The notes below the pieces were generated by a model, which made no database searches, was not told where the DNA came from, and worked only from the letters and a program-made list of their open reading frames with translations. This document shows positions 18,228 through 39,424 of a stretch of 39,692 nt of DNA, one piece after another. The stretch spans positions 1-39,692 of IMG/VR virus record IMGVR_UViG_3300045118_000413. One strand, given 5' to 3'. This stretch comes from a virus. A program made the translations under genes and the position numbers. Position 1 is the first letter of the stretch. Each line of letters starts with the position of its first letter.

Positions 18228-18412
18228 AAGAATTTTGTGAAGGTGAAATTGTCAGAGTAAAATTGACAAAAGAGAAGGTAATAGTTTTAGATAAACCTTC
18301 TTGTTATTCAGGACATAAAACTTATAAAGTTAGAGATACCAGAAATATTACCCGATATTTTTTTCCTTTTGAACTTGAAAATATACCAAAAAAGAAAGGG
18401 GTAAAGAAGTGA
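18224..18412 (+). CDS. Hypothetical 62-residue beta-rich protein
   Basis: GEIVRVKLTKEKVIVLDKPS then HKTYKVRDTRNITRYF: alternating strands like a small SH3/hypervirulence-type barrel. Starts in ATGA of the upstream gene and overlaps the GTG start of queD. Not identified. Confidence 0.65.
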   Translation: MKEFCEGEIVRVKLTKEKVIVLDKPSCYSGHKTYKVRDTRNITRYFFPFELENIPKKKGVKK

Positions 18413-18756
18413 TCATAGCTAAAACTTTTTATTTTGATTCAGCACATAAATTGCCGAATTATGAAGGTAAATGTAGATTTTTACATGGTCATAGATTCCG
18501 ATTAGATGTTGTTGTAGAGGGACATGTTAATCCTTTAACAGGAATGGTTATGGATTTCTCATACCTGAAAGAAGTAGTAAATAGTAGGATAATTCAATTA
18601 TTAGACCATTGTTTGTTAAATGAAATCCTAGAAAACCCTACAGCAGAAAACTTATTATTTTGGATAGCTGATGATCTTAAAAACCTACTACCTGATCTAA
18701 AAAGGCTTAGGTTGTATGAAACACCCGATTCTTATGCTGAATTGGAGGTAAAATGA
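18409..18756 (+). CDS. queD: 6-carboxytetrahydropterin synthase QueD
   Basis: 115 residues, GTG start in GTGA overlapping the upstream stop. Family hallmarks: zinc ligands H13 (FDSAHKL) and H26, H28 (RFLHGHRF), catalytic Cys22 (KCRFLHGH), VMDFSYLK, the LDHCLLN segment and a C-terminal Glu (LRLYETPDSYAEL). Converts dihydroneopterin triphosphate to 6-carboxytetrahydropterin, the second step to preQ0. Directly followed by queE (ATGA). Confidence 0.95.
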   Translation: MIIAKTFYFDSAHKLPNYEGKCRFLHGHRFRLDVVVEGHVNPLTGMVMDFSYLKEVVNSRIIQLLDHCLLNEILENPTAENLLFWIADDLKNLLPDLKRLRLYETPDSYAELEVK

Positions 18757-19409
18757 AAATTTTCAGTATTTTCCACTCAATAGATGGGGAATGTAATCTA
18801 TGGGGACAGGGAACATTCAGCACTTTCATACGTTTTTCAAATTGTAATTTAAGGTGCTGGTACTGTGACACAAAATATGCCCAAGAAGAAAGTTCTGGAA
18901 AGGACATGAGTGTAGAGGAAATTTTTAGACAAGTAGAATTTTATGGCTGTAAAAAAATCACAATAACTGGAGGAGAGCCTTTACTGCAAGAAAGGGCAGT
19001 ATACACCTTAATTGATAGATTTTCCGCAGCTAAATACAAAATAAGTGTGGAAACTAATGGAACTCAACCTATACCTACTATATTCAGATGGTTTAAGGAT
19101 TTATGTTGGGTTGTGGATTATAAATTAGATTACCAAAATAAGATGAATTATTGGTCTTTTGCTAATTTAACAAAAGATGATTTTGTAAAAATTCCGGTGG
19201 AAGATTTTAAACAGTTGGCTGAGGCTGTATTGGTGAGGAAGAGTTTGATAGATTATGGGTGTAGAGCCAGATTTTTCCTAAGTGCAGTTAAACCTAAATA
19301 TTCAGATCAAGCTCTAGTTGAGGATGCAATAAAAATAAAAATGTTTGATTTTGGAATAAATGTTCCATTACACAAGTATCTTTGGTCAGGTTCTAAACAT
19401 GAGAGATAA
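18753..19409 (+). CDS. queE: 7-carboxy-7-deazaguanine synthase QueE
   Basis: 218 residues, radical-SAM enzyme. Iron-sulfur motif C31-x3-C35-x2-C38 (CNLRCWYC), preceded by FSIFHSIDGEC, the usual QueE start. Then the SAM-binding KITITGGEPLLQ and SVETNGTQP. Converts carboxytetrahydropterin to 7-carboxy-7-deazaguanine. Coupled to queD by ATGA. Slightly compact for the family but all motifs are present. Confidence 0.95.
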   Translation: MKIFSIFHSIDGECNLWGQGTFSTFIRFSNCNLRCWYCDTKYAQEESSGKDMSVEEIFRQVEFYGCKKITITGGEPLLQERAVYTLIDRFSAAKYKISVETNGTQPIPTIFRWFKDLCWVVDYKLDYQNKMNYWSFANLTKDDFVKIPVEDFKQLAEAVLVRKSLIDYGCRARFFLSAVKPKYSDQALVEDAIKIKMFDFGINVPLHKYLWSGSKHER

Positions 19410-19446
19410 GGGAAAAAAATTTTTTGAATTTCCGAGGAAAAATAAT

Positions 19447-19475
19447 TTTCGGTTTTTCAAAAAATATGCTATATT
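19447..19475 (+). promoter_or_regulatory. Second-class promoter (TTTCGG -35)
   Basis: TTTCGG (19447-19452), 17-base spacer with GTTTTTCAAAAAA, TATATT (19470-19475) preceded by TGC. Same block as at 10532 and 30559. Serves the 19528-folE-Gat-queC-dpdA operon. Confidence 0.6.
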
Positions 19476-19527
19476 AGTAGTAGAATAAAAAAATGTCCTT
19501 AGAGACAAAAAAAATCAAGGAGGCTTT

Positions 19528-20187
19528 ATGAAAGAAATTGGTTTAATTGACTTAACAAAGTTGAAAGAGGCAATCAAATCCCTAAACGATTCCGGTCTTA
19601 TTGATCCTAAAATCAAGAGTGTAGGGAAAACTAAGGAACAACTAATCGAAGACTTCACCAACAAGATGGATGACTTGATTGAAAATCATCCAGACAAGAC
19701 AGACAAAATTCCTCAAATGGTAGCTGATATGTGGAATTTTATGTATGGTACAGATGATGCTCCTCCATCTACTCCTGCGGAACCTAAAGAAAAAGTAGAA
19801 GCTGCGGAACCTCAAGAAAAGGTAGAAGCTGAAGCTCCGAAAAAGGAAAAGAAAGCTAAAGAACCTAAACCTCCGAAAGAGCCCAAGGAAAAGAAAGAGA
19901 GAGGTCCTGGAGAAAGGATAATTTGGCTAAAAAACAAAATTGCTGAAGCTAAGTACACCAAGAAAGAATTGGTGGAAATGTATCTTGAACAATGGGGAGG
20001 ATCTAAACTTACTCCAGCTACTGCTTTAGCAGATGGAAAAAACCCCAATCAGTTAGGAACTAAATATGACAGGTTCAAGAAACTTATCCTTGTCAATGGG
20101 GATGGAGTTATGAGTTTCGATACATTGGCTCCTGTTAAACCTAAACCTGTTGAAGCTCCTGCTGAAGCTCCTGCTGAGGCTCAATAA
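19528..20187 (+). CDS. Lys/Glu/Pro-linker protein with the shared C-terminal domain
   Basis: 219 residues: N-terminal helical domain (1-~75), a low-complexity Glu/Lys/Pro/Ala linker (about 78-130, repeated AEPKEKVEA and PKEPKEKKE), the shared domain (AKYTKKELVEMYLEQWGG, TPATALADGKNPNQLGTKY; about 135-195), and a Pro/Ala tail (EAPAEAPAEAQ). The domain matches those at 5894-6400 and 401-829. ATG after AAGGAGGCTTT. It heads the deazaguanine operon after its own promoter; the function is unknown, and a DNA-binding regulator or an abundant nucleoid-type protein both fit. The linker repeats suggest slippage growth. Confidence 0.8.
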   Translation: MKEIGLIDLTKLKEAIKSLNDSGLIDPKIKSVGKTKEQLIEDFTNKMDDLIENHPDKTDKIPQMVADMWNFMYGTDDAPPSTPAEPKEKVEAAEPQEKVEAEAPKKEKKAKEPKPPKEPKEKKERGPGERIIWLKNKIAEAKYTKKELVEMYLEQWGGSKLTPATALADGKNPNQLGTKYDRFKKLILVNGDGVMSFDTLAPVKPKPVEAPAEAPAEAQ

Positions 20188-20756
20188 TGAACAAAAATGC
20201 CTTGGTGGTAATATTTGCCGGTTTTCTTAAGGAAATTGGTGAGGATCTGAACAGGAATGGTCTTGTTGATACTCCAAAAAGGATGGCTGAAATGTATGAG
20301 GAACTTTTTTGTGGGTATCAACAGGACAAAAAACCTAGGATCATGACTGTTCCAAATGGAGAAGATGGAATTCTTTATGATGAAATGCTCATAGATCAAG
20401 GTTACTTCTTCTCCCTTTGTGAACACCACATGCTTCCCTTCTTTGGTGAATACTACTATTCTTACATTCCTGACCAATTAGTTTTAGGAGCAAGTAAAAT
20501 AGGAAGAATGGTAGATTATTATTCTGGCAGACTTCAAGTGGCTGAAAGACTTGTGAATCAAATTGTAAATGAATTTGAAGAAGTCTTAAAACCTCAAGGT
20601 CAAATTCTTGTAATGAGTGCCAGACATCTTTGCAAAGAGATGAGAGGATTGAAAAAATTCAATTCCCCCTATGAAGCAATAGCTACCAGAGGTTTGTTTA
20701 GGACTAATGATGGGGGATGTAAAGATGAATTCCTTGCAAGGATCTCGAAAGGATAA
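20187..20756 (+). CDS. folE: GTP cyclohydrolase I
   Basis: 189 residues: LNRNGLVDTPKRMAEMYEEL, zinc/active-site CEHHMLPF (C78, H80, H81), GASKIGRMVDYYSGRLQVAE, SARHLCKEMRG (third zinc Cys) and the end AIATRGLFRTN. All are FolE type I signatures. Makes dihydroneopterin triphosphate from GTP, the entry to the preQ0 pathway. The start overlaps the upstream stop (TAATG). The N-terminal leader is short, as in phage enzymes. Confidence 0.96.
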   Translation: MNKNALVVIFAGFLKEIGEDLNRNGLVDTPKRMAEMYEELFCGYQQDKKPRIMTVPNGEDGILYDEMLIDQGYFFSLCEHHMLPFFGEYYYSYIPDQLVLGASKIGRMVDYYSGRLQVAERLVNQIVNEFEEVLKPQGQILVMSARHLCKEMRGLKKFNSPYEAIATRGLFRTNDGGCKDEFLARISKG

Positions 20757-20759
20757 CTT

Positions 20760-22097
20760 ATGTGTTCTATAAGTGGATGTTTAGTAGATTCCGCAAAAAT
20801 AGATTCCTTTTATTTAAGGGACATTATCAAAAAAGCACAAGAAAGAGGTAGAGATTCTTGCGGTATTTATATTGATGGAACTCTCTATTCCTCTATAGAA
20901 AAAGGTGTTATTCCTAAGATACCGATTAGTATTTATGAAATAGCTATAAATAATAATAGGGCCGAACCTACTACAGAATATGTAGAAAACAAAACTGATA
21001 AAGATGTCCAACCTTTCGTTACAAAGAGATTTGTAGTTGCTCATAATGGTACTATTGCAAATGACAAGGAACTAATTAAAAAATATTCCTTGAAAACAGA
21101 ATCCAAAATTGATTCTGCTGTAATAGCTCCATTATTAGAAAAAATTTGGAACGGTACTGTAGAACATCTTATTGAGGTACTAAGAGATGAGATTGTAGGA
21201 TCCTATGCTATGGCAATATGGGATAAGAAAACTCATACTCTATATTTAGCGGTGAATTACAAACCTTTATTTATAACATTTAAAGGAGATACTATCTATT
21301 TTTCCTCTTTAAGAAAATATCTAAATACCTATGATAACAAAATAGTGCAAGTTCCCCCTTATTCTCTGTTGGTATTGAAAGGAGGACAACTAATTCAACC
21401 CCATTCTCTTTGGAGACCTGCCCCTGAAAAAGATAAAAAGGTATTAGTAATATGTTCAGGTGGATTAGATTCTGTAGTAACTGCAACCTATTTAAAAGAT
21501 CAAGGATATGATGTTACTTTAGTCCATTTTGTTTATGGATGCAGGGCAGAAAAAAAAGAAATTCAAGCTGTAAAAGATGTTTCAGATTACCTTAACATGT
21601 CCTATCTTTTGGTTCCTCTTGACATCTTCAAAACTGTTATCGGACATTCAAGACTTACAAACACAAAAGATCAATTAGCAGATGGAGAGGCTTCCGCTGA
21701 ACTTGCTTGGGAGTGGGTTCCTGCAAGAAATTTAATAATGTATTCCATAGCTACAGCACTTGCAGAATCAAGAGGAGTAACTTACATAGCTTTGGGAAAT
21801 AATCTTGAAGAAAGCGGGGCCTATCCTGATAATGAGATGATCTTTGCTCAAAAATTCAATGACATCCTACCTTATGCTACCAATCTACAAAACAGGGTAG
21901 AAATGTTACAGCCTGTTGGAAACTTAATGAAACATGAGATAGTAAAAATGGGGTTAGAACTTAAGGCTCCTCTACATCTAACTTGGTCTTGTTATGAAGG
22001 TAGAGATTTGCATTGTGGGGTGTGCGGACCTTGCTATATGAGAAAAAAGGCTTTTATAATGAATAAGGTTGAAGATTGCATAAAATATGAAAACTAG
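20760..22097 (+). CDS. queC: Glutamine amidotransferase-QueC fusion (Gat-QueC)
   Basis: 445 residues. Domain 1 (2-~215) is a class II glutamine amidotransferase: N-terminal nucleophile Cys2 after Met removal, VAHNGTIAND around 93-102. Domain 2 (~226-445) is QueC: PP-loop SGGLDS (233-238), ARNLIMYSIATALAE, and a C-terminal zinc cluster C-x7-C-x2-C-x2-C (near CYEGRDLHCGVCGPC). QueC turns 7-carboxy-7-deazaguanine into preQ0. The fused amidotransferase is known from phages such as Enterobacteria phage 9g, where DNA carries deoxyarchaeosine, so an amidated preQ0 product is expected. ATG after CGAAAGGATAACTT. Confidence 0.94.
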   Translation: MCSISGCLVDSAKIDSFYLRDIIKKAQERGRDSCGIYIDGTLYSSIEKGVIPKIPISIYEIAINNNRAEPTTEYVENKTDKDVQPFVTKRFVVAHNGTIANDKELIKKYSLKTESKIDSAVIAPLLEKIWNGTVEHLIEVLRDEIVGSYAMAIWDKKTHTLYLAVNYKPLFITFKGDTIYFSSLRKYLNTYDNKIVQVPPYSLLVLKGGQLIQPHSLWRPAPEKDKKVLVICSGGLDSVVTATYLKDQGYDVTLVHFVYGCRAEKKEIQAVKDVSDYLNMSYLLVPLDIFKTVIGHSRLTNTKDQLADGEASAELAWEWVPARNLIMYSIATALAESRGVTYIALGNNLEESGAYPDNEMIFAQKFNDILPYATNLQNRVEMLQPVGNLMKHEIVKMGLELKAPLHLTWSCYEGRDLHCGVCGPCYMRKKAFIMNKVEDCIKYEN

Positions 22098-23904
22098 GAT
22101 CTTTTTAGATTCTGGAGCTTATACAGCCTTAACCAAAAACACAACTATTAATCTAACCGATTACATAAGATTTATCAAGGCTAATTTAGAATATTTAGAA
22201 GTTTATACCAATCTTGATTGTATTGGTAACGCCGAAGAAACTCTGATCAATCAAAAAGTTATGGAAGATTGTGGATTAAAACCTCTTCCTTGCTATCATT
22301 ACAATGAAGATGAAAAGTATTTAAGATATTACCTTGATAATTATGAGTATGTAGCTTTAGGGGGAATGGTAGGGGGAAGAAAAGAATCCTTACTCTCTTG
22401 GTTAGATCAATGTTGGAGAGTTATCTGTAAAGCTCCTGACTTTATCCCTAAAAATAAGATACATGGATTTGGTTTGACTTCTCCTGAGTTGATAGCAAGA
22501 TACCCTTGGTATTGTATGACAGAAGAAGACCATTCAATATTGACTAGATCAGGATGGAACAATTTATCAAATTTAAAAGTAGGAGATGAAATTCTGACTT
22601 TCAATTACGGGAAAACAGAATGGCAGAAAATAGAAGAAATTCCTATATTTGAAGTTCATAATGAAAAGTTATACAAATTATATAATAGGAATTTTAAAAC
22701 CATTGTTAGTGAAAACCATCGTTGGGTAGTGTCTCATTGGCAACATAGAGATGAAGAATATAAATGGAGAACAACAAAAACCCTTTCATTTAATGATTGT
22801 ATTAACCGTGTAGGAATGGATTACAATTTTCCCACAGAATCTAACATATCAAATGAACAAGTGATCATTTTATCTTGGTTTTGGACAGATGGTACTATAA
22901 ACAAAAGAAAAAGATATACCAAAAATAATGTAGTAATATATCAATCAGAAAAAGCGAATCCTGAAAAGTGTAAAATAATAAGGGAAGCCCTTATAAGGAG
23001 CGGAGAAATATTTTGTGAAAGTATAACTGAAAATATTATTTCCTTTGAATTGTACGGGGAAATGTCGGATTGGTTATTATCTATTGCACCTAATAAAAAA
23101 CTACCCGTTGATTTACCCTATAAATTAACAAAAGAACAAACGGAATTATTTATTAATAATTCCGTTTTAGCAGATGGGACTATTTCAGGTCTAAAAAGAA
23201 TAAAAGGGTTTGAGATTAAAGTCAAAAAGGAAATTAAAAAGGAAAATTTAGAAGTAATAAGGATAATGTGTTTATTGTTAGGTATACCCACCTCTGTTTA
23301 TGAATACAATAATTATAAAGGATTAAGGTCTTCTTCTATAAAACATATCTATGTAAATAAACTAAAAAAGGAAGAACAAATTTATTCAGGAAAACTATGG
23401 TGTGTGAAAGTCCCTTCTGAAGCATTTTTTGTAAAATGTAATAACCATATTTATGTTACAGGTAATTCAGTTGATTCTAGTTCATGGGTTCAATATGGAA
23501 AATATGGAATGGTCTTGATTCCTAGAGGTTCTTTCTCTGTGCCCCCATGGAGATTATTTATGTCAACTAGAAGTTCCAAGATAGGTAAAGATGGAGAGAT
23601 ACACTTTGATAATTTGACTAAACACTATAAAGCTTTAGCTTTAAACTACATTTCCTCTAAAGGATTCAGCTTGGGATCATCTGAATTTAAGAGAGTTCAC
23701 AATCTTTATAGACTGAAAGATAACGAAGCTTGGGCTGATATTAAAGAAAAAATTGTGGAGATCATTTTAGAAAAAGGATTGAGGAACAGTCATGAGTTAA
23801 GGGATCAATTCAATACCTGTTTCTTCCTTGATCTGCAAAATAGTGTACCTGAATGGCCCTGGCCTTGGAAGAAAGGAAGAAATGATTCTCTACTTTGCAG
23901 GTAA
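22087..23904 (+). CDS. dpdA: DNA 7-deazaguanine transglycosylase DpdA, interrupted by an intein
   Basis: 605 residues as encoded; after removing the intein (residues 143-460) about 287 remain. N-extein (1-142): TGT-like barrel start MKTRIFLDSGAYTALTK, YTNLDCIGN, VALGGMVGG and GFGLTSPELIARYPWY. C-extein (461-605): SVDSSSWVQYGKYG, carrying the conserved Asp-Ser-x-x-Trp of the tRNA-guanine-transglycosylase-like DpdA group, then IPRGS and a helical C-terminus. DpdA swaps guanine in DNA for a 7-deazaguanine made by FolE-QueD-QueE-QueC encoded just upstream. The start overlaps the end of Gat-queC by 11 bases; the end overlaps the gene at 23882. The protein is active only after splicing. Confidence 0.93.
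   Translation: MKTRIFLDSGAYTALTKNTTINLTDYIRFIKANLEYLEVYTNLDCIGNAEETLINQKVMEDCGLKPLPCYHYNEDEKYLRYYLDNYEYVALGGMVGGRKESLLSWLDQCWRVICKAPDFIPKNKIHGFGLTSPELIARYPWYCMTEEDHSILTRSGWNNLSNLKVGDEILTFNYGKTEWQKIEEIPIFEVHNEKLYKLYNRNFKTIVSENHRWVVSHWQHRDEEYKWRTTKTLSFNDCINRVGMDYNFPTESNISNEQVIILSWFWTDGTINKRKRYTKNNVVIYQSEKANPEKCKIIREALIRSGEIFCESITENIISFELYGEMSDWLLSIAPNKKLPVDLPYKLTKEQTELFINNSVLADGTISGLKRIKGFEIKVKKEIKKENLEVIRIMCLLLGIPTSVYEYNNYKGLRSSSIKHIYVNKLKKEEQIYSGKLWCVKVPSEAFFVKCNNHIYVTGNSVDSSSWVQYGKYGMVLIPRGSFSVPPWRLFMSTRSSKIGKDGEIHFDNLTKHYKALALNYISSKGFSLGSSEFKRVHNLYRLKDNEAWADIKEKIVEIILEKGLRNSHELRDQFNTCFFLDLQNSVPEWPWPWKKGRNDSLLCR
22513..23466 (+). mobile_element. Intein with LAGLIDADG homing endonuclease inside DpdA
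   Basis: 318 codons. Block A: Cys1 with CMTEEDHSILTRSGW and LKVGDEILTFN. Block B: VSENHRWVV, with its His. Homing endonuclease of the dodecapeptide type, motifs LSWFWTDGTI and FINNSVLADGTI. C-terminal blocks: LWCVKVPSEAFFVKCNN and HIYVTGN, followed by Ser+1 of the C-extein. The penultimate residue is Gly, not the usual His, a known variant. Insertion is just before the SVDSSSW catalytic motif, typical of inteins that target conserved active-site codons. Confidence 0.92.
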
Positions 23905-24103
23905 TTTCCCACAGTTATCAGACATCAAAAAGGAAAAAGAGTTCAAGGAAAGATTGCCGGAGTACAATAGATTGATTTCCTTTTATTATCTAAATGAATG
24001 TGAAACGGTACTTAAACTTGTAAAAGAGAAGGAGGAATATTTTGCGGAGGAAATCATAGAACCCGAATTTAAGAAAACAAAACAGAAAGGATTTAAAATA
24101 TAA
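23882..24103 (+). CDS. Conserved hypothetical, FAGNFPQ-type
   Basis: 73 residues from the ATG at 23882 (AAGAAAGGAAGAA in front); the frame extends further up inside dpdA. Begins MILYFAGNFPQLSDIKKEKE, then YNRLISFYYLNEC, a start I associate with a family of uncharacterised phage proteins lying near dpdA-type genes; not named with certainty. The C-terminal EFKKTKQKGFKI is encoded by the first copy of the 32-bp direct repeat. Compared with longer relatives it may be truncated. Confidence 0.65.
   Translation: MILYFAGNFPQLSDIKKEKEFKERLPEYNRLISFYYLNECETVLKLVKEKEEYFAEEIIEPEFKKTKQKGFKI
24068..24099 (+). repeat. 32-bp direct repeat, copy 1
   Basis: Identical to 24229-24260. Contains AACAGAAAGGATTTAAAAT, which includes a ribosome site. 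Copy 1 codes for the last residues of the upstream gene. Confidence 0.95.
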
Positions 24104-33844: not shown

Positions 33845-34192
33845 ATGAAAATAAAACATTATGCAGTGGGTGTATCACTTTTATTTTTAGTAGGATGTGC
33901 TGGATTTAGTAGGTCGTGTTCATCTTTTAGTGCGGGAACCTTCGGATCAAATTGGATAATAGTTCAATATGATTATAAAGGGAACCCGATTAATTGTTGG
34001 AAGCTACAAAACGTTAGTGTGAGCAACGAAAGAAATAGTGATGGAATATATTGGAAAGATTCCTCAGGACATTTAGTTCATATTTCAGGTTGGTACAATA
34101 GAATCCAGGTAGAAGGAGACAGGTATGAAGAGGCTGCAAAATTAGTAGGGGTAGAACTTTCAAAAATAACAAACGGCAAATACGGGAAATAA
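33845..34192 (+). CDS. Putative lipoprotein
   Basis: 115 residues with a type II signal peptide: KIKHY basic start, VGVSLLFLVG hydrophobic core, lipobox LVGC (15-18), mature Cys18. The mature part is small and beta-rich (NWIIVQYDYKGNPINCWKL) with further Cys. Presumably exported and lipid-anchored in the host envelope; in phages such moron lipoproteins often block superinfection or receptor access, but the target here is unknown. ATG after AGAAAGGAAAGATAA. Not a recombination gene, though embedded among them. Confidence 0.7.
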   Translation: MKIKHYAVGVSLLFLVGCAGFSRSCSSFSAGTFGSNWIIVQYDYKGNPINCWKLQNVSVSNERNSDGIYWKDSSGHLVHISGWYNRIQVEGDRYEEAAKLVGVELSKITNGKYGK

Positions 34193-36029: not shown

Positions 36030-36087
36030 ATTAACCTTAGCTGACATGGCAAGAATTTTAGCTATTATAGATAAGGATAAAAAATGA
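36013..36087 (+). CDS. Possible 24-residue peptide
   Basis: MMIEFKLTLADMARILAIID..., amphipathic. Overlaps the end of the nuclease gene by 17 bases and the SbcC start by 4 (ATGA). The ribosome site is weak (GATCAGGCAA). May only serve to couple translation. Confidence 0.3.
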   Translation: MMIEFKLTLADMARILAIIDKDKK

Positions 36088-37205
36088 TAAATTCCCTAGA
36101 AATTGAAAATTTTCAATCCCACAAAGATAGTGTCATAGAATTTAATAAAGGCCTAAACATTATAACAGGTGCCAGCGATTCTGGTAAATCTGCTATAATT
36201 AGAGCTTTGCTTTGGGTTATCAACAATAAACCACTTGGAGATGATTTTAAAAATTGGGATAATCCTGAAGCAATAACTAGGGTTGGTATTGAGTTTGATG
36301 ATGGTGAGTTGTCTAAAGAGAGAGGTAAGAGTAACGTTTACATTACACAATCGGGAAACTTAGAAGCTTTTAGGTCTGAGATTCCTGAAGAAGTTCAAGA
36401 AATAACCAAGATAACTGACTACAATATCCAAACTCAACACCAACCCTACTTTCTATTACAAGATTCCCCAGGAGAAGTAGCTAGAAAACTGAATGAACTA
36501 GTTGGGCTGGATGTAATTGACAAATTATATAAAAATATTAACACCAAAATTACTTCTACCAAATCAAGCATAGAACACACAAAAAGTATCATTTCTGACC
36601 TTGAGAGTGACCTTGAAAAATATGCTCATATAGAGCTTATTTCTGCTTTGATAGAAAAACTTGATGTATCAGTCAAGAAAAAAGAGATCGTTGAAATCCA
36701 GCGTGTTTCTGTTCGTGGTTTGTGTGTTTCTGTAGCTGATTTGAACTCTAAAATTGAAAATCAGAAAAAGATTTTAAAAGCTGAAGCAAAAATGAAGGTA
36801 TTAAAAGAAAAACTGGTGAAACAGGTTCAATTAAAGTATCATTACTTTTCCCTACATAAAATAATTTCTGACCTAGAAGAGATAAAAACCAAAACAAAGA
36901 ATGAGAGAGAATGGTTGACTGTTGAACCCCTTTACAAATCTCTAGGTGAGAAATTGGATAAAAAAACGGAACTAGGGTATAAAGCAGATGAACTTGAAAA
37001 TTGGAAAAACAACCTAAATTTGGTTAATGCAAGTATAGAATATAACAAAAAGGATTTAAAAACCTACCAAACCGAATACATAAAACTGTTAAAGGAACAT
37101 AAAATTTGTCCAATCTGTCTATCCCCAATAGATAATGAAACTTTAAATAGAATAACATTTGAAGGATACCTAGATGAAAATAATATTATTTCTGATTATA
37201 CTTAG
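36084..37205 (+). CDS. sbcC: SbcC/Rad50-type ATPase, N-terminal half
   Basis: 373 residues. N-terminal ATPase lobe: LEIENFQSHKDS, Walker A GASDSGKS (29-36), IRALLW, and a Q-loop-like NIQTQHQPYFLL. Long coiled-coil arm (about 150-335). Ends right after CPIC (342-345), the zinc-hook half motif, followed by about 28 extra residues. Walker B and signature are absent; they are in the gene at 38819-39424. Complete SbcC/Rad50 proteins are one chain, so here the ATPase is split at the hook. Overlaps RlpA-like gene start by 32 bases. Confidence 0.88.
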   Translation: MINSLEIENFQSHKDSVIEFNKGLNIITGASDSGKSAIIRALLWVINNKPLGDDFKNWDNPEAITRVGIEFDDGELSKERGKSNVYITQSGNLEAFRSEIPEEVQEITKITDYNIQTQHQPYFLLQDSPGEVARKLNELVGLDVIDKLYKNINTKITSTKSSIEHTKSIISDLESDLEKYAHIELISALIEKLDVSVKKKEIVEIQRVSVRGLCVSVADLNSKIENQKKILKAEAKMKVLKEKLVKQVQLKYHYFSLHKIISDLEEIKTKTKNEREWLTVEPLYKSLGEKLDKKTELGYKADELENWKNNLNLVNASIEYNKKDLKTYQTEYIKLLKEHKICPICLSPIDNETLNRITFEGYLDENNIISDYT

Positions 37206-37548
37206 TCTTACCCCCCTTAATACGATAAGTTCTACCTCATCCAAAAAGATAGTAAAAATAGAATATAAAGGAATTGCTAGTTGGTATGGTACTAAATTCC
37301 ATGGAAAAAAAAGGGCTGATGGTAAAATTTATAACATGCACAATATATCAGTAGCCCACAAAACGCTACCTTTAGGAACTGTGTTAAGAATAACTAATCT
37401 AAATAACAACGAAACCATATTAGCGAGAGTGAATGATAGAGGTCCTTACATAAAAGGTAGAATGATTGACTTGTCTTTAGGTGCAGCTAAAAGATTAAAT
37501 GCAGTAAAATTAGGATTAATTCCTGTAACGATAAGGATACTTTCATGA
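37174..37548 (+). CDS. rlpA: RlpA-like double-psi beta-barrel protein
   Basis: 124 residues: signal-peptide-like start (KIILFLIILSLTPLNTISS), then the RlpA barrel: GIASWYGTKFHGKKRADG, AHKTLPLGTVLRITN, ARVNDRGPYIKGRMIDLS (catalytic-type Asp in NDRGP), AAKRL. RlpA proteins are secreted lytic transglycosylases or septal-ring proteins acting on denuded glycan. Start lies inside the SbcC-N end; stop overlaps the SbcD start (ATGA). A cell-wall protein between recombination genes is a likely moron or an insertion that split sbcC from sbcD. Confidence 0.85.
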   Translation: MKIILFLIILSLTPLNTISSTSSKKIVKIEYKGIASWYGTKFHGKKRADGKIYNMHNISVAHKTLPLGTVLRITNLNNNETILARVNDRGPYIKGRMIDLSLGAAKRLNAVKLGLIPVTIRILS

Positions 37549-38405
37549 TCATATTATGTACTGGAGATTGGCACATAAGAGCAAATAGGCCAGAAAATAG
37601 GATTGATAATTACAAGAAATCTCTGTTTAAAAAATTAGAATGGATATTAAATCAGGAGTTTACAGTCCTCCAACCTGGTGATTTTTTTGATTCCCCTATG
37701 GCTCCTTATTCCTTAACCTTAGAAACAACGCAATTTCTAAAAACATTTTGCTATACACCTATTTATACAGTTTTTGGACAACATGATCTAAGATACCACA
37801 CTTCAAAAGAAAACTCCCCATTAGCTCTCTTGAATGAAGTAGAACAAGTAGAAGTGATAGGAATAAAAAATATTATGGATATTTCAATTTATGGATGTTC
37901 ATGGGGAGAAGAAATCCCGAAGATAACTACCAATAGCAGAATAAACATTCTTTTGATCCATAAGATGATAGTAGATGAAAAACTATGGGCAGAGCAAGAA
38001 GGACACACTTGGGCTAATCACATTTTAGCTAATAATAACTTTGACTTAATAGTTTCAGGAGACAATCACAAATCCTTTATTGTAGAATGGGGTGACAAAA
38101 TCTTGGTTAATTGTGGGTCATTAATGAGATCAAGAATAGATCAAAAAGACCACAAGCCTATGATTGTTACTTATGACACAGATACAAAAGAAGTTGAATA
38201 CCAATACATTCCCGTTAAACCTATTGAGGAAGTTATGGATTTGAAGGAAAAAGAGAAGGAAAGAAATGAGGAACTAGAAGCTTTCGTAAAAGGATTATCA
38301 CAGCAAAAAGAGATGGGATTAAATTTTGTGGAATCTTTGTTCCAATTTATAGAAGATAACAAAATTGATAACTCAATCAAAACTTATATTGAGGAGAGTT
38401 TGTAA
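37545..38405 (+). CDS. sbcD: SbcD/Mre11-type nuclease
   Basis: 286 residues. Metallophosphoesterase motifs: CTGDWHIRA (I), QPGDFFDSP (II), VFGQHDLRYH (III, GQHD for GNHD), LLIHKMIVD (IV), SGDNHKSFI (V). C-terminal capping domain is acidic-helical (DLKEKEKERNEELEAF). Partner of the SbcC halves; processes DNA ends. Start overlaps RlpA stop (ATGA), stop overlaps next start (TAATG). Confidence 0.92.
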   Translation: MIILCTGDWHIRANRPENRIDNYKKSLFKKLEWILNQEFTVLQPGDFFDSPMAPYSLTLETTQFLKTFCYTPIYTVFGQHDLRYHTSKENSPLALLNEVEQVEVIGIKNIMDISIYGCSWGEEIPKITTNSRINILLIHKMIVDEKLWAEQEGHTWANHILANNNFDLIVSGDNHKSFIVEWGDKILVNCGSLMRSRIDQKDHKPMIVTYDTDTKEVEYQYIPVKPIEEVMDLKEKEKERNEELEAFVKGLSQQKEMGLNFVESLFQFIEDNKIDNSIKTYIEESL

Positions 38406-38644
38406 TGGCCTATGACATTGTTAAAGAACTAGATTCTTTGTCTAAGGAAATAGATAAGGCAAAAAGTAATATTGCACAATTTGAGGGACAAAAAATCCAA
38501 TTAATGAAACAATTAAAAGACTTAGGGTATTCTTCAGTTGAAGAAGCAGGAAAAGATTTGACCAAAATGGATAACCAATTAATAGCATTAGGTGAAGAAA
38601 TAGAAAAGGGGTTTAAAGAATTAAAGGAAAATTATGAATGGTGA
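38405..38644 (+). CDS. Coiled-coil protein between SbcD and SbcC-C
   Basis: 79 residues, heptad pattern throughout: IVKELDSLSKEIDKAKSNIA, KIQLMKQLKDLG, QLIALGEEIEKGFKELKE. Could substitute for part of the SbcC arm or bridge the two halves, which is inference. Starts at the SbcD stop. Confidence 0.65.
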   Translation: MAYDIVKELDSLSKEIDKAKSNIAQFEGQKIQLMKQLKDLGYSSVEEAGKDLTKMDNQLIALGEEIEKGFKELKENYEW

Positions 38645-38835
38645 TCTTCAAAGAAAGAAAAAAGTGTGATTATTGTTGGCAATTTGTTTACTCTGAAGAC
38701 CTAAAAAAGATAATTTTAAGAATACCTTTTAAAGGTTTCCCTTTTGAAAACCATTATGAAACGAAATCTATAAATGTTTGCAGTAAATGTAGAGGAACTC
38801 TAACGGGATTATGGAAATATGATAGAGGAATATAA
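38638..38835 (+). CDS. Zinc-motif protein
   Basis: 65 residues with CDYC (10-13) and CSKC (about 48-51) separated by a basic beta region (IILRIPFKGFPFENHYE). Overlaps both neighbours by 7-17 bases. Ribosome site AAAGGAAAATTATGA. A second zinc module lying next to the SbcC C-terminal half, possibly relevant to the split hook; function unknown. Confidence 0.65.
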   Translation: MVIFKERKKCDYCWQFVYSEDLKKIILRIPFKGFPFENHYETKSINVCSKCRGTLTGLWKYDRGI

Positions 38836-39424
38836 AAAAAGATTGGCAAAGGAAATTGCTCAAAGGGATTTACTGAAAGAGCATATCATTAAAGAAAAAG
38901 CTAACTTAGAGAAATATGAAGAGGATCTAAAAACGGGAACTAAGGCAAGGGCTATTGTACAGACCGTGGCAGAACAAGTGCAAAAGAAACTAGAATACCA
39001 TATTTCAAACTTAGTATCAATGGCACTCGCTTCTGTATGGGAAGATCCTTACAAATTCTCTATAAATTTTGTCCAGAGAAGAAACAAAACTGAGTGCGAT
39101 TTAATCTTTTCCAAAAATGGAAAAGAGACTGATGATATTGTAAATTCAGGAGGTGGAGGGGTTTGTGACATAGTTTCAAACATAGCTTTACCTGTTGCTT
39201 TATGGTCCATCAAAAAATCTAGGAATGTGATGATATGGGATGAACCTACAAAGTTTCTACACAATCCTACTTACCAAGAAAAAGCTTCGGAAATGATAAA
39301 GAAACTATCTGAAGAGCTTAGACTTCAAATTATAATGGTAACCGATCAACAAAATCTACTAAATGCCGCAGATAAAGTAATAACTGTAGAACAGAAAAAC
39401 GGGGAATCTAAAGTTTCTCCCTAA
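38819..39424 (+). CDS. sbcC: SbcC/Rad50-type ATPase, C-terminal half
   Basis: 201 residues: coiled coil (EEYKKRLAKEIAQRDLLKEH, about 1-60), then the C-terminal ATPase lobe with ABC signature-like NSGGGGVCDIVSNIALPVAL, Walker B VMIWDEPTKFL, and the H-loop position in IIMVTDQQNL (Asp in place of the usual His). No CxxC hook at its start. Together with 36084-37205 it rebuilds a small Rad50-like ATPase. The order SbcC-N, RlpA, SbcD, two small genes, SbcC-C is unusual. Confidence 0.85.
   Translation: MIEEYKKRLAKEIAQRDLLKEHIIKEKANLEKYEEDLKTGTKARAIVQTVAEQVQKKLEYHISNLVSMALASVWEDPYKFSINFVQRRNKTECDLIFSKNGKETDDIVNSGGGGVCDIVSNIALPVALWSIKKSRNVMIWDEPTKFLHNPTYQEKASEMIKKLSEELRLQIIMVTDQQNLLNAADKVITVEQKNGESKVSP

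What the first reader, a model, noticed from the sequence alone, without database searches (positions are those of the whole stretch)
36084..39424. SbcC/Rad50 split at the zinc hook, with SbcD and RlpA in between
The N-terminal half has Walker A and ends at CPIC; the C-terminal half has signature and Walker B with no hook. Between them are RlpA-like, SbcD, a coiled-coil protein and a two-CxxC protein. The split at the natural hinge suggests that the two halves assemble as a heteromer, and the small Zn protein could replace the second hook half.
Basis: partly seen in the sequence, partly recalled or inferred. Interest (0 to 1): 0.65.

Follow-up and report, generated by a model that had tools for sequence, protein, structure and literature searches.

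The report
Phage SbcC/Rad50 encoded in three pieces
Many uncultured phages, and a few cultured ones, make the DNA-repair clamp protein SbcC/Rad50 not as one chain but as separate proteins cut at its zinc-binding tip, encoded beside its nuclease partner SbcD; the cut is kept across distant phages, so it is probably a working design and not a broken gene.

Summary
An N-half (36084-37205: lobe I, Walker A, long helix, CPIC hook) and a C-half (38819-39424: signature, Walker B) of an SbcC/Rad50-type ATPase lie apart, with RlpA-like, SbcD-like, 79-aa coiled-coil and 65-aa two-CxxC genes between them. It is not a remnant or intron: among 100 loci with distinct C-halves, 99 show the order N - SbcD - ~80-aa coil - C on one strand, catalytic motifs are intact, and no intact SbcC was found in the large contigs checked. 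The hook ends the N-half in 97 of 98 (median 7 residues before the stop). The overlooked conserved third part is the coil; coil plus C-half matches the hook-to-Walker-B length of intact T4 gp46 and T5 D13. Most likely this is a working SbcCD (gp46/47-type) complex whose SbcC assembles from separate chains, the coil supplying part of the returning arm (inferred). I found no description of it in the papers searched. New variant of a known kind.

The parts
36084..37205 (+). N-half of SbcC/Rad50: lobe I with Walker A, ascending arm (helices 144-179 and 183-339 in the model), zinc hook CPIC at residues 342-345 near the C-terminus
37174..37548 (+). RlpA-like/DPBB protein, overlapping the N-half by 32 nt; passenger, not found in any other locus of the module
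37545..38405 (+). SbcD/Mre11-like phosphoesterase nuclease subunit; conserved member of the module
38405..38644 (+). 79-aa coiled-coil protein (two helices, 2-39 and 45-76), conserved third part; proposed missing stretch of the returning arm
38638..38835 (+). 65-aa two-CxxC protein, found only in this window; passenger
38819..39424 (+). C-half of SbcC/Rad50: short coil, lobe II with signature SGGGG and Walker B WDEP; Asp in place of the H-loop His

Best explanation
This is a working phage SbcCD (Mre11-Rad50, T4 gp46/gp47 type) DNA-end-processing complex whose SbcC/Rad50 subunit is made from separate polypeptides. The N-half gives lobe I (Walker A, Q-loop), the full ascending arm and the zinc hook. 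The C-half gives lobe II (signature, Walker B) and the head-proximal end of the returning arm. The ~80-aa coil gives most of the missing middle of the returning arm. Two such assemblies would join through their two CxxC motifs around one Zn at the apex and through ATP between the heads, with SbcD bound at the base, and process DNA ends for the phage's recombination-dependent replication. Shown: the split, its conservation, the motif integrity, the linkage with SbcD. Inferred: physical assembly, the coil's place in the arm (about 0.6 on its own), the enzymatic activity.
For: Order N-SbcD-coil-C on one strand in 99 of 100 loci with distinct C-halves, the 100th (Bacillus phage vB_BboS-125) being N-coil-C-SbcD. 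No ORF over 500 aa matches either half, and the gp46-family profile finds no intact copy in 14 large contigs; where it matches the module it matches the halves separately. Hook at the end of the N-half in 97/98, median 7 residues after it; CxxC in 0/96 C-halves and 0/100 coils. Invariant in the alignments: Walker A G/G/K and hook Cys 92/92, Q-loop Gln 92/92, Walker B D and E 84/84, signature Gly 84/84. Nuclease motifs of SbcD kept. Length: Walker A to hook median 315; coil (80) plus C-half start to Walker B (139) = 220, against hook to Walker B 213 in T4 gp46 and 245 in T5 D13. AlphaFold model of the N-half: globular lobe, ~195-residue arm, hook turn; nearest folds Pfu Rad50. The Pfu Rad50 head was crystallised as two separate chains, and these are the best PDB matches of the two halves. 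Distances of the four proteins co-vary (r 0.59-0.75, permutation maximum 0.17). RecA-like recombinase in 133 loci. Microcystis phage Mvi-JY20 has the same four genes side by side.
Against: No experiment shows assembly or activity. The coil has no significant direct sequence match to the returning arm of intact proteins; the ASRP match (26 of 92 members, best 2.6e-4) is weak and coiled coils match promiscuously. Coil plus C-half still pairs with fewer residues than the ascending arm offers. Only the best 80 of 159 and 230 relatives were kept, so rarer intact relatives could have been missed. The window's C-half lacks the H-loop His.
Confidence: 0.75

Rival explanations
1. Two-part SbcC only: N-half and C-half form the ATPase, and the coil is an accessory subunit that binds SbcD or clamps the base of the arms rather than continuing the returning arm.
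For: The coil gene is next to SbcD in many loci (44 of 99 within 20 nt); the modelled coil has two helices with a short break that could be a hairpin; no direct sequence match to an arm.
Against: The length budget fits a returning arm; the window coil matches ASRP 360-429 and Rad50 548-598, both between hook and lobe II, though weakly; clear heptad pattern.
Confidence: 0.3
2. Decaying remnant of an intact sbcC broken by gene insertion.
For: Passenger genes (RlpA, two-CxxC) lie inside the module in this window.
Against: Same break in very distant phages, intact motifs, no intact relatives found.
Confidence: 0.03
3. One gene joined by intron splicing, trans-splicing, intein or programmed frameshift.
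For: None found beyond the split itself.
Against: The gap holds conserved co-directional genes incl. sbcD; each piece has its own start and stop; order is N-coil-C-SbcD in vB_BboS-125 and SbcD-N-coil-C in the Alkaliphilus plasmid; in Magritte the halves are far apart in the record.
Confidence: 0.02
4. An SMC-like ATPase for another task (defence such as Lamassu LmuB, or chromosome handling as ASRP), not end processing.
For: The N-half also matches LmuB 5e-16 and ASRP 2.6e-9.
Against: Constant company of an SbcD-type nuclease and, in most loci, a RecA-like recombinase; no PADLOC match of the nuclease.
Confidence: 0.08

Closest known systems
T4 gp46/gp47 and T5 D13/D12 (phage SbcCD)
   Same: Rad50-like ATPase with one CxxC at the apex, partnered by an SbcD-type nuclease; similar total arm length; phage recombination setting
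   Different: gp46 and D13 are single chains of 560 and 612 aa; here the chain is split at the hook into N-half, coil and C-half
Bacterial SbcCD / archaeal and eukaryotic Mre11-Rad50
   Same: Same motifs and hook logic; N- and C-halves match Rad50 families and structures
   Different: Much shorter arms, separate polypeptides, SbcD gene between the pieces
P. furiosus Rad50 catalytic domain crystals (1f2t, 1ii8, 3qkr)
   Same: Lobe I and lobe II as two chains that form one ATPase; best PDB matches here
   Different: Engineered truncation without arm and hook, not a natural split
PHROG families phrog_16465 (exonuclease) and phrog_15167 (ATPase)
   Same: Match all 92 N-halves and all 84 C-halves scanned
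   Different: Listed as separate proteins; not recorded there as parts of one split SbcC
Mimivirus R555-type Mre11/Rad50 fusions (PMC3175470)
   Same: Unusual polypeptide layout of the same complex
   Different: Fusion of the two subunits instead of a split; that paper notes one P-loop segment missing in Bacillus phage 0305phi8-36, whose record was not available here
ASRP / ClsN (archaea-specific SMC-related proteins, PMC9389158)
   Same: Short Rad50-like protein with zinc hook; weak match of the coil between hook and lobe II
   Different: Single chain of about 590 aa, no Mre11 partner mentioned

Membership tests
SbcC/Rad50 | ABC/SMC-type ATPase with Walker A in the N-part and signature plus Walker B in the C-part | tested here: met
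   but on separate chains
SbcC/Rad50 | Zinc hook CxxC at the apex between the two arms | tested here: met
   97 of 98 N-halves; Cys invariant in 92; hook turn in the model
SbcC/Rad50 | Single polypeptide with both arms | tested here: not met
   no ORF over 500 aa for either half; separate genes in 100 loci
SbcC/Rad50 | Antiparallel arm of matched length | tested here: inconclusive
   length budget fits only if the coil is part of the arm
SbcCD complex | SbcD/Mre11 nuclease partner with phosphoesterase motifs | tested here: met
   motifs I-IV kept; motif V is GDNH in 82 of 100 in place of GHxH
SbcCD complex | Physical complex with ATP- and metal-dependent nuclease activity | not testable with these tools
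   needs protein expression
Lamassu LmuB | Single-chain SMC protein with Lamassu partner LmuA/LmuC | tested here: not met
   N-half matches LmuB, but it is split and its partner is SbcD-like with no PADLOC match

The most novel reading that the evidence does not exclude
The split is functional in its own right: the two hook-bearing N-chains stay joined by zinc at the apex while the coil and C-chains can dissociate and re-enter, giving a Rad50 ring that opens in its arms or is assembled in stages on DNA, which a single chain cannot do.
Probability: 0.12. Interest if true: 0.85.

Novelty: new variant of a known kind. Interest (0 to 1): 0.6.

Why it matters
Rad50 is universal and thought of as one continuous chain that folds back on itself at the zinc hook. 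A naturally split version, kept across distant phages, shows that the fold-back connection is dispensable and makes the roles of arm continuity and hook separately testable with natural parts. It also explains a set of phage proteins now listed as unrelated exonuclease, ATPase and hypothetical proteins, and corrects annotations in cultured phages (Microcystis phage Mvi-JY20, Bacillus phage vB_BboS-125).

Tried and rejected
Zn protein as second hook half: rejected (one CxxC per Rad50 protomer; gene private to the window). RlpA as part of the system: rejected (private). Remnant, intron, frameshift: rejected. Fused coil in longer ORFs as a Rosetta stone: none found. Direct profile match of the coil to T4 gp46, T5 D13, archaeal relatives and one ASRP: no significant match. 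Fold search of the coil model: no PDB match. Fetching more ASRPs from archaeal genomes gave one sequence only. Bacillus phage 0305phi8-36 record not held. Scan of bacterial and archaeal genomes: only 10 MAG contigs. Literature searches for a split SbcC/Rad50/gp46: nothing describing it; the jumbo-phage survey reports split RNAP and PolIII but no split SbcC in the passages found.

Full report
What is there. The window is an IMG/VR virus record of 39,692 bases. The N-half (373 aa) carries Walker A and ends shortly after a CPIC motif; the C-half (201 aa) carries an SGGGG signature and Walker B. Both match Rad50/SbcC families. Between them lie RlpA-like, SbcD-like, 79-aa coiled-coil and 65-aa two-CxxC genes.

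Is the split real and conserved. Profile scans of viral contigs found 159 relatives of the C-half and 230 of the N-half, of which the best 80 each were kept. In these loci no ORF above 500 aa matches either half; N-halves are mostly 300-420 aa, C-halves about 205, coils about 80, SbcD about 300. Of 100 loci with distinct C-halves and all four genes, 99 have the order N - SbcD - coil - C on one strand. The exception is the cultured Bacillus phage vB_BboS-125, N - coil - C - SbcD with an AP2-domain gene after N. The cultured Microcystis phage Mvi-JY20 has the four genes contiguous, all annotated as hypothetical, and its N-half ends at CSQC. A 436-kb Alkaliphilus plasmid has SbcD - N - coil - C with CPLC in the N-half. 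A 485-kb metagenomic phage has N (CPVC near the end), SbcD and C in the same order. Microbacterium phage Magritte has N and C far apart in the record, and its N-half lacks the hook. In 14 large contigs of the family the gp46-family profile found no intact copy.

Not a remnant. Walker A G/G/K, Q-loop Gln and both hook Cys are invariant in 92 N-halves; Walker B D/E and a signature Gly are invariant in 84 C-halves. The SbcD nuclease motifs are kept. Pairwise distances of the four proteins co-vary well above permutation, as expected for a unit inherited together, though shared phage ancestry alone also gives this. The intervening genes, each with its own start and stop, and the changed gene order in three genomes speak against splicing.

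Anatomy. The AlphaFold model of the N-half (mean pLDDT 88.8) shows lobe I, a helical arm 144-339, and a hook turn at 340-350; the nearest folds are P. furiosus Rad50 chains. The hook is near the C-terminus in 97 of 98, with a median of 7 residues after it; this window has the longest tail, 28. Intact Rad50 has one CxxC per chain and two chains share a Zn (PMC6969161), so two N-halves suffice for a full hook. From hook to Walker B, T4 gp46 has 213 and T5 D13 245 residues; the C-half start to Walker B is 139 here, leaving 74-106 missing, and the coil is 80. The coil model has two helices, 2-39 and 45-76 (mean pLDDT 95), with heptad periodicity. Its best curated-family match across members is ASRP, a single-chain Rad50-like protein with a zinc hook (26 of 92 members, next best 8; PMC9389158), in the window at ASRP 360-429, between hook and lobe II. 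These matches are weak (E about 1e-3) and direct profile tests were negative, so the coil's role is an inference.

The passengers. RlpA and the 65-aa two-CxxC gene were found in no other locus. Two-CxxC small ORFs occur in the coil-C gap in 3 of 99 loci and at a similar low rate elsewhere. They sit where other phages of the family carry other unrelated genes.

Mechanism. Established knowledge: Rad50 lobes I and II form an ATPase when supplied as two chains (the P. furiosus Rad50 crystals, the best PDB matches of both halves). So N-half plus C-half can plausibly form the head, N-halves dimerise by the hook, and SbcD binds the base. The genes lie beside a RecA/UvsX-like gene (133 loci), a 5'-3' exonuclease and a RusA-like resolvase, which fits end processing for recombination as in T4. 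This is inferred, not shown.

Known or new. Searches of the open-access library found no description of a split SbcC/Rad50/gp46; subscription journals and preprints are not covered. The halves exist as separate PHROG families. I rate it a new variant of a known kind.

Limits. Relatives were ranked by similarity to the halves, so rare intact relatives may be missed; contigs are mostly fragments; no complex prediction could be run.

Noticed in passing
38819-39424 (C-half residue 176): The H-loop His of the ATPase is Asp here (VTDQ) and in 17 of 84 C-halves; the rest have His.
   Followed up: partly
37545-38405: SbcD motif V reads GDNH in 82 of 100 members where GHxH is usual.
   Followed up: partly
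18409-24103: A 7-deazaguanine (queuosine/DNA-modification type) gene set: QueE-like, QueC joined to a glutamine-amidotransferase-like part, and a TGT-like 605-aa protein matching only over its first ~144 residues.
   Followed up: no
33845-34192: Small lipoprotein-like protein whose relative (44% identity) lies directly after the split-SbcC C-half in the 485-kb phage LR745208 (L217 11908-12306).
   Followed up: partly
L215 10022-11893: The Alkaliphilus plasmid carries an intact 623-aa Rad50/SbcC-like ATPase about 1.5 kb from its split set.
   Followed up: no
L172 5839-6891: The N-half of Microbacterium phage Magritte has no CxxC hook at all.
   Followed up: no
38638-38644: The coil's last codons (GAA TGG TGA) overlap the next start codon; coil and C-half genes overlap or lie within 20 nt in 59 of 99 loci, suggesting translational coupling.
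   Followed up: partly
L003 and L089: A second contig from another sample encodes an N-half identical over 219 residues, so the same phage was found twice.
   Followed up: no
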